The position numbers and the translations under genes are program-made. From Desulfitobacterium dehalogenans ATCC 51507 (GTDB lineage Bacteria > Bacillota > Desulfitobacteriia > Desulfitobacteriales > Desulfitobacteriaceae): a stretch of 64,000 bases of DNA. The notes beneath the pieces were generated by a model. That model saw only the letters and a list, made by a program, of their open reading frames with translations. It had not been told where the DNA came from and did not search any database. Shown here piece by piece: positions 31,981 through 57,082 of the stretch. Positions within the stretch are counted from its first letter, which is position 1, and each line of letters begins with the position of its first letter. The DNA lies in contig NC_018017.1 in assembly GCF_000243155.2 (NCBI RefSeq), positions 2,232,001 to 2,296,000 on the forward strand. The letters run 5' to 3'.

Positions 31981-32274
31981 TCTCCATGATTTTGCTTTCG
32001 GCGTTCACTTCATAAGCTGCGCGGAGCAATCTAATCGCTCAAGACCTCCGCTGCGTCGGGTTCCCGGCTAAATCGGCTCCTCGAAAGCACTGCTTTCGCA
32101 CTTGTTCTCATAGCCGGTTGGAAACGTCCTGTTTCCAACCCGACTCCGCTGCAGTCTTTCGCGAAGATTGCTTACCTGCTCGCCTAAATCCGTTCACTGC
32201 CTTAAAGAAAAATCCTTGGGTTCTCTTTCGGGCTTAAGCAGTGCAGCTACGCGACCCCGAGTAGTTTTTCATCC
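31981..32274. repeat. 294-bp structured dispersed repeat, copy 1
   Basis: This stretch matches 54219-54512 end to end at roughly 85% by hand alignment, with the same length and orientation. It holds a predicted three-way junction: GTCGGG pairs with CCCGAC, enclosing stem CCGGCTA/TAGCCGG (capped by CGAAAGC-ACT-GCTTTCG) and hairpin TTGGAAAC-GTCCT-GTTTCCAA. A CGGAG/CTCCG stem precedes it. It has no open frame shared by both copies. It lies between the acs operon terminator and the start of the 31884 gene. Nature unknown: structured RNA or small mobile element. Confidence 0.85.
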
Positions 32275-32317
32275 TTCGCTGGCGCTGCAGCGGCGGCATG
32301 GCGGCTATCTTGAAAAA

Positions 32318-32580
32318 GACCCGCAAGCGTAGCTTTACGCACAAGAGCGAAGGATTTTCACTGTGTATAAGGCTGCTAAGGCTTCTGCTTCGCTTCACTC
32401 ACCATAAGCCAAGCTTTCTTTAAGCGGAAGGGCGGCCGGGTCAACGAAGCTTTCTTAACGTAGCGAAGCCATGGTTAACATCAGGTATTACCCTGAGGTT
32501 TGGTGAAGCTGTTAAGAAAGCGAGTGACCAGCCCAGGAGCTATTGAGTGAGCGTTGTGCGTAAAGCTACACGCCCGGACA
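32318..32580. repeat. Nested inverted-repeat block adjoining repeat copy 1
   Basis: GTAGCTTTACGCAC (32329-32342) pairs perfectly with 32556-32569. Inside it GCTTTCTTAAC (32449-32459) pairs with 32511-32521, and inside that TCAGG-TATTAC-CCTGA forms the tip. CGCTTCACTCA (32391-32401) can also pair with TTGAGTGAGCG-like bases near 32543-32553. One long imperfect stem results. No coding frame. This block is absent beside copy 2, where the clpB-side repeat ends without it. Confidence 0.7.
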
Positions 32581-32649
32581 AGCTTTTTCATCCATCAATA
32601 ATGCCGCCTAGTCTGCCTGAAAGCCCGATAGCCCGATAGCGCACACAAA

Positions 32650-45554: not shown

Positions 45555-45631
45555 CGGGGTATAGCGCAGTTTGGTAGCGCGCCTGCTTCGGGAGCAGGAG
45601 GCCGTGGGTTCAAGTCCCGCTACCCCGACCA
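45555..45631 (+). tRNA. tRNA-Pro (anticodon CGG)
   Basis: The 77-base gene folds as a full cloverleaf. Acceptor CGGGGTA pairs with TACCCCG, followed by A and an encoded CCA. The anticodon stem CCTGC/GCAGG holds loop TTCGGGA, with anticodon CGG at 45589-45591. The T-arm GTGGG TTCAAGT CCCGC is intact. It reads proline codon CCG. It stands alone between its own promoter and terminator. Confidence 0.97.
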
Positions 45632-46341: not shown

Positions 46342-46357
46342 AGATTCAGTAATTGAA

Positions 46358-46466
46358 TACCTCTGGGGATTGGTGAAACTCCATACCGGCGGTCAAGCCC
46401 GCGAGCCACTATGGCAGATCTGGTGTAATTCCAGAGCCGACAGTAAAGTCTGGATGAGAAGAGGAA
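46358..46466 (+). promoter_or_regulatory. FMN riboswitch (RFN element)
   Basis: Conserved RFN blocks are visible: GGTGAAACTCCATACCGGCG, GTCAAGCCCGCGAGCC, GGCAGATCTGGTGTAATTCC and GAGCCGACAGTAAAGTCTGG, closed by P1 CCTCT (46360-46364) with AGAGG (46460-46464). It binds FMN and controls ribD-ribE-ribBA-ribH. The 5' P1 strand CCTCTGGGG (46360-46368) is perfectly complementary to CCCCAGAGG (46511-46519), the 5' arm of the terminator. Without FMN this pairing blocks termination; with FMN, P1 forms and the terminator folds. Confidence 0.95.
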
Positions 46467-46510
46467 ATTTAAGTGCTTATTGCGCTTTTTATTTGCTGTG
46501 ATTTTCGATG

Positions 46511-54218: not shown

Positions 54219-54512
54219 TCTCCAGGATTTTGGCTTTCGGCGTTCACTCTATAAGCTGCGCGGAGCAATCTAATCGCTCAAGACCTCCGCTCCGTCGGGA
54301 CTCCGCCCAAATCGCTCCTCGAAAGCACTGCTTTCGCACTTGTTCTCAATGGGCGGTTGGAAACGTCCTGTTTCCAACCCGACTCCGCTGCTGTCTTTTC
54401 GCGAAGATTGCTTTCCTGCTCGCTTAAATCCGTTCCCTGCCGGAAATCAAAATCCTTGGGCTGTCTTTCGGGCTTAAGCAGAAAGCTACCTGACTCGAGC
54501 CGCTTTTCATCC
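54219..54512. repeat. 294-bp structured dispersed repeat, copy 2
   Basis: This is the partner of 31981-32274, same length and orientation. The three-way junction is kept: GTCGGG/CCCGAC encloses CCGCCCA/TGGGCGG and hairpin TTGGAAAC-GTCCT-GTTTCCAA. Against copy 1 the middle stem shows two changes on each arm that keep pairing. A minus-strand frame across it (54278-54538) is not shared by copy 1 and is not a gene. It lies between the terminator at 54583 and the clpB promoter. Confidence 0.85.
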
Positions 54513-54582
54513 ATCTGCCGATACTCCCTCGACCACAAAGGTGATCATACCAGCACAGCTTAGCACCATGAACACCCGCCCA

Positions 54583-54613
54583 AAACAAAACCCCCAGGCT
54601 CGGCACCTGAGGG
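54583..54613 (-). terminator. Terminator of the anti-sigma-like gene
   Basis: On the minus strand CCCTCAGG pairs with CCTGGGGG (G-U pairs), followed by TTTTGTTTTGG. It lies about ten bases after the stop. Confidence 0.78.
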
Positions 54614-54624
54614 TAAACGCGCAG

Positions 54625-55185
54625 CTACTCCATAAGCTGTCCATTTCTATAGATGAGGCTCTTATCTGCAAACTCAATGACAAGAGTGCTTTTGAAGTTA
54701 TCAATTTCATGCCAATATTCCGGAACACCTACGGCAACTAAACGGTCAGCAGAGGTAAATATATTCCGGAGAAATGTTGTGCGAAAAATTCTATAATGAT
54801 GTGTTGAATGGCTTTTTTCACTAAAATCTTGAGGCGACACTTCAACCATTTCAATATTGTATCCCATAATATTTACTTGAAAAGATTTAAGGCCTCCCTG
54901 CATAGTCACTTCTTCTGTCCAGATCTGTGTTTCTGAATAGTTTACCGGAAGTTCAAGGTGATATAGAAAAAGACCTGATATAAATAAAACGGTTACAATG
55001 ACAGTAGTTATGATAGAAACCCAAAGCTTTTTACGGTTCCACTTCTTTTTGATGTTCTTAAAAGCCCTTGTATCATTATCTATCGCTAATTCTATTGGGG
55101 CCTGCAGTATTTTCAATTCATCTTTGCAACTTTCGCATTCTGACAAGTGTTTCTCAACAAAGTTTCTCGTATCAGCACTTACCAC
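54625..55185 (-). CDS. Anti-sigma-factor-like zinc-finger membrane protein, start missing (probable 5' remnant)
   Basis: The frame encodes a zf-HC2-type anti-sigma finger (HLSECESC), one membrane segment (LWVSIITTVIVTVLFISGLF) and an outside domain of about 110 residues. The first standard start, GTG 55185, falls inside the finger: homologous coding (INCNVIRDILPLYIEN) continues in frame upstream but has no ATG, GTG or TTG before the neighbour's terminator, and no ribosome site is seen. No sigma factor gene precedes it. It looks like a 5'-truncated anti-sigma gene; use of a rare start codon is the alternative. Confidence 0.6.
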   Translation of the reverse strand: MVSADTRNFVEKHLSECESCKDELKILQAPIELAIDNDTRAFKNIKKKWNRKKLWVSIITTVIVTVLFISGLFLYHLELPVNYSETQIWTEEVTMQGGLKSFQVNIMGYNIEMVEVSPQDFSEKSHSTHHYRIFRTTFLRNIFTSADRLVAVGVPEYWHEIDNFKSTLVIEFADKSLIYRNGQLME

Positions 55186-55270
55186 ATTTTCGATATAAAG
55201 CGGTAATATATCTCTGATAACATTACAATTAATTTTAAGGCTTATGGAAGAAATTGGGCATGCAAAACGA

Positions 55271-55312
55271 AAATGCCATCTCCACTCAAAAAAACTGATG
55301 GAGAAGGCATTT
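55271..55312 (-). terminator. Terminator of the phosphohexomutase gene
   Basis: AAATGCC..TCTCCA pairs with TGGAGA..GGCATTT; the minus-strand RNA goes on with TTTTCGTTTT. It lies 42 bases past the stop. Confidence 0.85.
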
Positions 55313-55354
55313 CCAGGCGAAGCAATCTGTATTTCGGTCTTAACTCAAGGTGCA

Positions 55355-57082
55355 CTAATCTTCGATGAGCTCAAGCAAATCCTTTTTAACACGTTCTAAG
55401 GTGTTGGGGAGCTGTTCCGGATCAGATTCTCTAATATTGAAGTAAAATTTAATTTTAGGCTCTGTTCCTGAAGGACGGGCCATGACAAACCCCCCGCCCT
55501 GGAAAGAATAGCGGATGACATTGGATTGGGGAAGAGAAAGAGTATAACTATGGAGGGGGGAAATCATCCTTCTTCCTTTCCTCAACTCATAATCGTCAAT
55601 GCATTCGATGGGAATACCCCCGAAGAACTTTACATCGGTCTCACGGAGTTTAGCCATCATCTTCACCATTTTCTCCCTACCTTCTTTGCCTTCCAAGGTA
55701 ATGGAGATCTGATCATCAATAAAATAACCATACTTCTCATAGATATCCTCTAAGACTTGCAGTAATGAACGGCCTTCTACTTCCTGATAGTAAAGAGCCG
55801 CTTCCGCAAGTAAGAGAGAAGCGATCACTGCGTCCTTATCTCGTACAAAATGTCCGGCTAAATACCCATAACTCTCTTCAAAACCGAATTGAAAATCTCC
55901 ATTTCCTTGGGCTTCCATTTCCTGCTCTTTCTCGGCAATGAATTTAAACCCGGTGAGAACATTTTCAATTTGAACTCCTAAATCCTTGACCATGAGATCG
56001 GCAAGATCCGTAGAGGCAATCGTTTTAATGACGACGGCATTATCAGGTAAAATACCAAGTTTCTTCTTTTGGCTGAGAAGATAATAGCTCAAAAGGGTTC
56101 CTACTTGATTCCCCGTGAGCTGCTGATAATCCCCTTGAGGTGTTCGAAATGCCATTCCCAGACGGTCTGCATCGGGGTCTGTAGCGATTAACATATGGGC
56201 ATTTACAGCTTCACCATATTTTTTAGCCAAATCAAAAGTGGTGGGAATTTCAGGATTAGGATAAGGAACCGTTGTAAATTCCGGATCCGGCTCCTCTTGT
56301 TCGGGAACAGTAAATACAGAATAGCCCATGTCGGTTAAGATTCTTCTCACCAACATATTCCCTGCTCCATGCAAAGGAGTATAGACAACGGATAGATTGC
56401 TTCCCTTTGTCCGGGAAAGTTCCGGATATAAAGCCAATTCTTTGACCTTGCTCAAATAAACTGAATCAATCTCTTCACCAATCTCCACCAAGAGTCCCTT
56501 GTCCCGAGCTTCCGCCTCCCCAAGGGGGAAGATATCATCCCAACGTTGATGACCCTTTATATAGGCCAAAATTTGGTCTGCACGGCCTGGCGGGACCTGA
56601 CCTCCATCCTCCCAATACACCTTATAGCCATTATATTCCTTAGGGTTGTGGCTGGCAGTAATCACAATTCCTGCTTGAGCCTTAAGGTGGCGAACTGTGA
56701 AAGAAAGCTCTGGAGTCGGGCGCAGATCCTCAAATATATAGGCCTTAATTCCGTTGCCGGCAAGCACTAAAGCAGCCTCTTTCGCAAAACGATCAGAAAG
56801 ACGACGGGAATCATAGGCAATAACTACCCCCCGCTTCTTCCCCTCTTCTCCTTCTTCAAGGATTAAGTCAGCCAAGCCTTGAGTTGCTTTGCGAATGACA
56901 TAGATATTCATACGATTGGTACCGGCACCCAGTACACCTCGTAGTCCCCCGGTGCCAAATTCCAAATCCATATAAAACCGGTCCTCTATCTCTTTCTTAT
57001 CCTTAATGCCTGCGACTTCAGAGCGGGTATCATTATCGAAATAGGGACTGGTCAGCCAAAATTGGTAACGCTCTTGAATCAT
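55355..57082 (-). CDS. Phosphoglucomutase/phosphomannomutase, alpha-D-phosphohexomutase family
   Basis: The 575-residue enzyme moves phosphate between C1 and C6 of hexoses. The phosphoserine loop is TASHNPKEYNGYK, the metal loop DPDADRLGMAF, the sugar loop GFEESYGYLAG and the phosphate loop RPSGTEPKIKFYF. The length and N-terminus (GTGGLRG) match the PgcA-type bacterial phosphoglucomutase. I start at ATG 57082 (AAGGAG nine bases upstream); the GTG start at 57124 adds residues without homology. Single gene with its own terminator. Confidence 0.94.
   Translation of the reverse strand: MIQERYQFWLTSPYFDNDTRSEVAGIKDKKEIEDRFYMDLEFGTGGLRGVLGAGTNRMNIYVIRKATQGLADLILEEGEEGKKRGVVIAYDSRRLSDRFAKEAALVLAGNGIKAYIFEDLRPTPELSFTVRHLKAQAGIVITASHNPKEYNGYKVYWEDGGQVPPGRADQILAYIKGHQRWDDIFPLGEAEARDKGLLVEIGEEIDSVYLSKVKELALYPELSRTKGSNLSVVYTPLHGAGNMLVRRILTDMGYSVFTVPEQEEPDPEFTTVPYPNPEIPTTFDLAKKYGEAVNAHMLIATDPDADRLGMAFRTPQGDYQQLTGNQVGTLLSYYLLSQKKKLGILPDNAVVIKTIASTDLADLMVKDLGVQIENVLTGFKFIAEKEQEMEAQGNGDFQFGFEESYGYLAGHFVRDKDAVIASLLLAEAALYYQEVEGRSLLQVLEDIYEKYGYFIDDQISITLEGKEGREKMVKMMAKLRETDVKFFGGIPIECIDDYELRKGRRMISPLHSYTLSLPQSNVIRYSFQGGGFVMARPSGTEPKIKFYFNIRESDPEQLPNTLERVKKDLLELIED

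What the first reader, a model, noticed from the sequence alone, without database searches (positions are those of the whole stretch)
31981..32274. 294-bp dispersed repeat with a covarying three-way-junction structure (also 54219-54512)
Two intergenic stretches 22 kb apart align end to end (294 bases each, about 85% by hand, same orientation). Both can fold as GTCGGG/CCCGAC enclosing a middle stem and the hairpin TTGGAAAC-GTCCT-GTTTCCAA. The middle stem is CCGGCTA/TAGCCGG in copy 1 and CCGCCCA/TGGGCGG in copy 2: two positions changed on each arm with pairing kept. Such compensatory change points to selection for structure. Each copy lies between the terminator of one minus-strand unit and the promoter of the next. 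Neither copy shares an open frame, and no target-site duplication or terminal inverted repeat was seen. It may be an undescribed structured RNA family or a small non-autonomous element.
Basis: partly seen in the sequence, partly recalled or inferred. Interest (0 to 1): 0.78.

Follow-up and report, generated by a model that had tools for sequence, protein, structure and literature searches.

The report
Repeated tandem structured RNA-like elements, Desulfitobacterium
The two stretches are copies of a non-coding element present about 72 times in this bacterium; its first half is a distant, previously unrecognised relative of a known orphan RNA family (TwoAYGGAY), and it usually travels with a second folded module that matches no known RNA family.

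Summary
The 294-bp repeat (88% identical) has 72 copies in its 4.32-Mb genome and relatives across Desulfitobacterium and kin. The three-way junction is real: 65 pairs, 95.4% paired, 32 with changes on both sides; slid controls give 33-51%. Module A (the finding) is one unit. In 49 of 63 cases the undescribed module B lies downstream of A in the same orientation, never in another arrangement. Module A read on the MINUS strand is a divergent TwoAYGGAY RNA (Rfam RF01731): a covariance model of A finds 29 of 32 TwoAYGGAY places in related genomes (E to 2e-11), with no false hit in 154 kb. Both junction hairpins carry GGA loops; the first is 99.9% conserved between copies against 82% elsewhere. 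This fits, but does not prove, the published idea that TwoAYGGAY binds CsrA; csrA is present. Empty sites in relatives show gain and loss. Best reading: a non-coding, non-autonomous dispersed element built of tandem structured units, A a new TwoAYGGAY variant, B a new structured module. How it spreads, and whether it is transcribed, remain untested.

The parts
31982..32219 (-). Module A core, copy 1 (between the terminal inverted repeats); strand given is the TwoAYGGAY sense strand
   Evidence: covariance model R1 hit 32015-32186 minus, 140.8 bits
32015..32186 (-). TwoAYGGAY-homologous inner part of copy 1 (two GGA hairpins plus enclosing rod)
   Evidence: homology of the model to RF01731 places
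31982..31998 (+). left terminal inverted repeat of module A (CTCCATGATTTTGCTTT)
   Evidence: pairs with the right end in 94% of cells over all copies (helix 1)
32203..32219 (-). right terminal inverted repeat of module A (ends AATCCTTGG)
32055..32144 (-). three-way junction: GTCGGG/CCCGAC stem enclosing middle stem 32064-32070/32111-32117 and hairpin 32118-32138 (minus-strand loop AGGAC)
   Evidence: hairpin 99.9% conserved
32082..32098 (.). optional hairpin CGAAAGCACTGCTTTCG in the second GGA hairpin, present in some copies only
32244..32303 (+). common 3' frame of a unit: GCTAC..GACCC..GTTTTTCATCC plus hairpin ending GCGGCATGGC
   Evidence: similar frame in A and B units
32309..32593 (+). 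Module B of copy 1 with its frame (CTTGAAAAAGACC ... GCTTTTTCATCC); P1 32329-32344/32554-32569, P4 32449-32459/32511-32521
   Evidence: pairing
32473..32493 (+). conserved apical motif of module B (here GGTTAACATCAGGTATTACCC; usual form GGTTCACATCAGGTATTACCC)
32359..32415 (+). optional insert in module B (CACTGTGTATAAGGC...), present in some copies; right edge approximate
54220..54459 (-). Module A core, copy 2; no module B follows here
   Evidence: R1 hit 54254-54426 minus, 152.3 bits
54294..54383 (-). three-way junction of copy 2: stem 54294-54299/54378-54383, middle stem 54303-54309/54350-54356, hairpin 54357-54377
54486..54512 (+). 3' frame of copy 2 (GCTACCTGACTCGAGCCGCTTTTCATCC)

Best explanation
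The finding is one unit (module A) of a non-coding dispersed element. SHOWN: 72 A copies and at least 63 B copies in one genome, a mosaic of tandem units in fixed order A then B, conserved base-paired folds, presence and absence at orthologous sites between species. SHOWN by sequence-structure homology: module A read on the minus strand is a divergent TwoAYGGAY RNA (RF01731), a long rod ending in a junction with two hairpins that carry GGA. INFERRED: the unit acts as RNA transcribed from the minus strand and presents GGA loops to an RNA-binding protein, most plausibly CsrA (which the genome encodes), so that copies titrate or locally recruit it; the element lacks genes, so it must have been spread by machinery supplied in trans, not identified here. 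Module B (sense strand plus, by G-U bias) is an undescribed structured RNA-like partner. My likelihoods: A is a TwoAYGGAY homologue 0.9; non-autonomous dispersed element 0.85; acts as RNA 0.6; binds CsrA 0.3.
For: Copies. Fixed A-B order: 49 of 63 B with A upstream in the same orientation, 0 otherwise; chance per B about 0.007. Covariation: A 65 pairs, 32 with two-sided changes, 95.4% paired vs 33-51% slid; B 50 pairs, 32 with two-sided changes, 95.5% vs 32-39%. TwoAYGGAY link: sub-threshold Rfam hit exactly on the minus strand of an A copy (L042, 37.3 bits); A profile HMM hits five over-cut-off TwoAYGGAY loci at E 3e-8 to 3e-7; covariance model of A hits 29 of 32 TwoAYGGAY places, 28 full-length at E 2e-11 to 5e-6 and one partial, all on the TwoAYGGAY strand, and nothing but the two window copies in 154 kb of control sequence. 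GGA hairpin constraint: 99.9% vs 82% identity, 68 of 72 exact. CsrA gene present; CsrA-site match proposed for TwoAYGGAY in PMC4333381. Gain and loss. RNA-level selection for B: G-U 82 vs A-C 28, sign p 0.002.
Against: No transcript data. For module A the G-U versus A-C test gives no clear strand (32 vs 41, p 0.10), so a DNA-level role of the fold is not excluded. The copies of this genome do not reach Rfam's TwoAYGGAY model even at lax thresholds, and the A model misses the two over-cut-off TwoAYGGAY of G032 and one of G028. No promoter beyond chance within the copies. Copy orientation relative to neighbouring genes is random, odd for a dedicated regulatory RNA. 72 copies is many for a CsrA-sequestering RNA.
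Confidence: 0.72

Rival explanations
1. Purely selfish DNA element of MITE/REP type: the long imperfect palindromes are DNA hairpins or ends recognised by a transposase supplied in trans, and the fold serves mobility rather than an RNA function.
For: Terminal inverted repeats, no ORF, intergenic, copy number 72, gained and lost between species. No strand preference of wobble pairs in module A. Orientation random relative to genes, and divergent (promoter) gaps rare, 4 of 43.
Against: Module B shows a clear G-U bias on one strand. The first GGA hairpin, which is internal and not terminal, is the most constrained part, loop included. No target-site duplication was seen; a transposase with matching ends was not searched for.
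Confidence: 0.4
2. Cis-acting transcript element (terminator, processing site or mRNA-end stabiliser, as proposed for REP/BIME).
For: Lies in gaps after genes, rarely in divergent gaps; T-runs at both unit ends (CTTTTTCATCC on plus, GTCTTTTTCAG on minus).
Against: Orientation relative to genes is random (++ 13, -- 14, convergent 12); the T-runs lie in the outer inverted repeat; orthologous gaps lack it in relatives; terminator-like hits not above chance at copy 1.
Confidence: 0.15
3. A wholly undescribed RNA family.
For: No Rfam hit at gathering score in the window except FMN and tRNA; module B has no Rfam match at E 5.
Against: Module A is homologous to RF01731. True only for module B.
Confidence: 0.1
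4. Fragment of an IS end, group II intron or other known mobile element.
For: Repeated, and mobile in evolutionary terms.
Against: No Rfam intron or HEARO hit on the copies; essentially absent from viral contigs (1 stretch); neighbours differ from copy to copy.
Confidence: 0.05

Closest known systems
TwoAYGGAY RNA (Rfam RF01731)
   Same: Minus strand of module A: long enclosing rod, junction, two adjacent hairpins with GGA; same order and spacing; profile and covariance-model homology to over-threshold members in Desulfosporosinus-type genomes.
   Different: Below Rfam detection in Desulfitobacterium; first loop AGGAC (5 nt) instead of AYGGAY; optional ~70-nt and ~25-nt extensions; 72 copies with terminal inverted repeats; coupled to module B.
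bcr1 / BOX / BIME-type interspersed bacterial repeats (bcr1 named in PMC2267715; BOX and BIME from own knowledge)
   Same: Dispersed intergenic non-coding repeats that fold and can come as mosaics of modules.
   Different: Longer (about 650 bp composite), two complex folds with extensive covariation, one of them homologous to an Rfam RNA family; no sequence relation was tested.
CsrB/RsmZ-type CsrA-sequestering sRNAs
   Same: Works-like comparison only: GGA hairpin loops on a structured RNA.
   Different: Not homologous, two GGA loops rather than many, dozens of genomic copies; CsrA binding untested.

Membership tests
TwoAYGGAY (RF01731) | Two adjacent hairpins closed by an outer stem | tested here: met
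   (helices 6, 7, 8) and covariance-model alignment
TwoAYGGAY (RF01731) | GGA (AYGGAY) terminal loops in both hairpins | tested here: met
   minus strand: loop 1 AGGAC in all 24 rows; GGA in hairpin 2 in 23 of 24 rows (not L052); exact AYGGAY only in some divergent copies such as L042
TwoAYGGAY (RF01731) | Score above Rfam gathering cut-off (43 bits) | tested here: not met
   own copies not listed; best A copy 37.3 bits, L042. So filed as a divergent relative, not as a member by Rfam's threshold
TwoAYGGAY (RF01731) | Homology to accepted members by an independent model | tested here: met
   controls
CsrA-binding RNA | Binding to CsrA through GGA loops | not testable with these tools
   csrA present; loops conserved
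MITE-like non-autonomous element | Terminal inverted repeats and no conserved ORF | tested here: met
MITE-like non-autonomous element | Empty sites in relatives | tested here: met
MITE-like non-autonomous element | Target-site duplication | tested here: inconclusive
   flanks too diverged at the three sites examined
MITE-like non-autonomous element | Autonomous partner with matching ends | not tested
   no search for transposases with these ends was made

The most novel reading that the evidence does not exclude
A bacterial RNA-based mobile repeat: each inserted A-B composite is transcribed as structured RNA whose GGA hairpins bind CsrA and whose B module binds a second, unknown partner, so that the number of inserted copies sets a genome-wide buffer on CsrA, and the element spreads as a tandem of RNA domains in a common frame.
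Probability: 0.15. Interest if true: 0.85.

Novelty: new variant of a known kind. Interest (0 to 1): 0.6.

Why it matters
It places an orphan Rfam family (TwoAYGGAY, reported in 2010 without a known function) inside a high-copy dispersed element and shows that the family is multi-copy in this order. That gives dozens of natural variants per genome for testing the CsrA idea. It also reveals a second, undescribed structured module (B) with strong covariation and an invariant apical motif, conserved across several genera, and a rule of assembly (tandem units, fixed order, common frame).

Tried and rejected
Rfam at gathering score and at E up to 10 on the window copies: only FMN and tRNA, and a chance S10 leader. 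A first alignment of B mixed both strands because B is nearly palindromic; discarded and redone. FMN riboswitch as control for the G-U strand test: direction right by raw counts (15 vs 3) but too few changes to be a strong control. TwoAYGGAY units of relatives lean to their sense strand (46 vs 27) without significance. A pseudoknot between GTGAAC and the apical GTTCAC of B was considered; not seen in the covariation list. Group II domain V and HEARO considered by eye; no Rfam hit. Replication-strand bias of copies: 42 of 72 if the origin is at base 1, not notable. Literature searches for repeats of this kind in Desulfitobacterium found none.

Full report
OBSERVATION. The two stretches align over 300 columns at 88% identity. 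The window lies in a complete 4.32-Mb genome (G000; by size probably Desulfitobacterium dehalogenans, from own knowledge). A search of that genome scored 40 of 95 candidates, all 40 being copies. A 21-nt pattern for the hairpin found 72 places: 68 exact, 4 with one mismatch, none with two or three, and 0 for the reversed control pattern. The repeat is real, high-copy and extraordinarily uniform at that hairpin.

EXTENT. Aligning 40 own copies shows a core bounded by imperfect inverted repeats, AGGATTTTGCTTT at the left and AAAGCAAAATCCT at the right, which close the fold. The core is about 215-300 nt depending on two optional inserts: a 25-nt hairpin, and about 70 nt with its own hairpin.

A SECOND MODULE. 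About 30 of the 40 copies share a further conserved block downstream. This module B (about 190-260 nt) is closed by GTAGCTTTACGCACAA/TTGTGCGTAAAGCTAC. It lies at 32309-32593 behind copy 1 and is missing behind copy 2. A pattern from its 3' half occurs 63 times. For 49 of the 63, a module-A hairpin lies 256-575 nt upstream in the same orientation, and no other arrangement occurs. A and B units share a frame: a left edge like TACTCTGAAAAAGACC, and a right edge like GACCCGAGCAGCTTTTTCATCC followed by a GC-rich hairpin. The composite looks like tandem units in a common frame.

STRUCTURE. On 45 divergent A copies the full rod plus three-way junction has 65 pairs, of which 95.4% of cells pair. 32 pairs carry changes on both sides. 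Sliding the partners by 1-3 columns drops pairing to 33-51%. On 36 B copies from several genera, 50 pairs give 95.5%, 32 with two-sided changes, and slid versions give 32-39%. Some of the A changes are subfamily-wide and represent fewer events than cells; the structures were derived from the same sequences, which favours them over slid versions.

WHICH STRAND. A-C mismatches on one strand are G-U pairs on the other. Among well-supported pairs, B has G-T 82 versus A-C 28 (weighted) on the plus strand (sign p 0.002). A has 32 versus 41 (p 0.10): no clear strand, leaning to minus. B therefore looks like an RNA of the plus strand; A is not settled by this test.

FAMILY. RF01731 itself is multi-copy in this order: 9 of 41 genomes have matches over the cut-off, and one genome lists 19 matches at E up to 1. 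The A profile hits five over-cut-off TwoAYGGAY loci on the corresponding strand at E 3e-8 to 3e-7. A covariance model built from minus-strand A copies finds 29 of 32 distinct TwoAYGGAY places (my count after merging overlapping loci), 28 full length at E 2e-11 to 5e-6 and one partial; it misses the two of G032 and one of G028. In 154 kb of control sequence including the window it finds only the two window copies. Own copies are not found by Rfam's model, so A is a divergent relative, not a member by Rfam's threshold. One own locus (L011, conserved in two other species) carries an A unit followed by two further TwoAYGGAY-like units in the opposite orientation.

CONSTRAINT ON GGA. On the minus strand hairpin 1 reads UUGGAAAC-AGGAC-GUUUCCAA, and hairpin 2 carries GGA as well. 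Hairpin 1 is 99.9% identical to consensus across 40 copies against 82% for the rest of the core. TwoAYGGAY was proposed to be a CsrA-binding RNA because both loops match the CsrA site (PMC4333381). The genome encodes one CsrA. This agrees with, but does not test, CsrA binding.

DISTRIBUTION AND MOBILITY. Module A: most of the genus and some family members. Module B: 17 of 41 relatives; named records are Desulfitobacterium, Paradesulfitobacterium, Desulfosporosinus, a Clostridiales MAG and a Peptococcaceae MAG (60 stretches were returned, possibly a limit). Viral contigs hold one B-motif match and no A-hairpin match. At copy 1's locus the G002 genome has A and B but of another subfamily, while G003, G009 and G001 have a gap without it. 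At copy 2's locus G002 and G003 lack it. At a third locus (L004) G003 has an empty gap, and G002 has a deletion derivative joining the start of A to the inside of B. Several other loci are shared between species. The element is therefore old, gained and lost, and subject to recombination between units. All copies examined lie between genes; neighbours are ++ 13, -- 14, convergent 12, divergent 4.

HOW IT MOST LIKELY WORKS. Shown: high copy number, fixed modular order, conserved folds, homology of A to TwoAYGGAY, gain and loss. Inferred: transcription and action as RNA, GGA-dependent protein binding (CsrA first), spread by machinery supplied in trans. The main rival, a selfish DNA hairpin element, is not excluded because A has no strand bias and no transcripts could be examined.

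VERDICT. Module A: a new variant of a known RNA family. Module B: an undescribed structured module. Composite: a new arrangement within the known class of dispersed bacterial repeats.

Noticed in passing
L011 1838-1992 and 2116-2270 (G000:C1 about 3453340-3453770): Two further TwoAYGGAY-like units in tandem behind an A unit, in the opposite orientation, at a locus conserved in two other species.
   Followed up: partly
Module B apical loop, e.g. window 32473-32493; L131, L135: The apical loop of B comes in two interchangeable forms, CAGGTATTACCC and GCAGAAAGCAGCGG, between the same nearly invariant flanks (GGTTCACAT and GGTTTGGC).
   Followed up: no
L056, L014, L024, L060, 3' part of module B: Some B units carry an extra domain GTACGTGAGCTCCGATGAAGAAAGCCTCCGGTGGAGGGTTTCAGGAGCTCACGCCCGAAGGTTCG near the 3' end.
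   Followed up: no
L118 (D. acididurans contig 15), L263, L259, L261: In Desulfosporosinus the units form tandem arrays with periods of about 280-350 nt.
   Followed up: no
L031, L040, L078, L046; G000:C1:4125206 and 4125637: Pairs of A units in inverted orientation a few hundred bases apart, recurrent in the genus.
   Followed up: partly
window 46355-46469 and 45555-45628: FMN riboswitch (111.9 bits) and a tRNA gene; the only Rfam gathering hits in the window.
   Followed up: no
window 54515-55356: A stretch with an ORF of 186 aa next to copy 2 is absent, together with the repeat, from the gap next to clpB in two related species.
   Followed up: no
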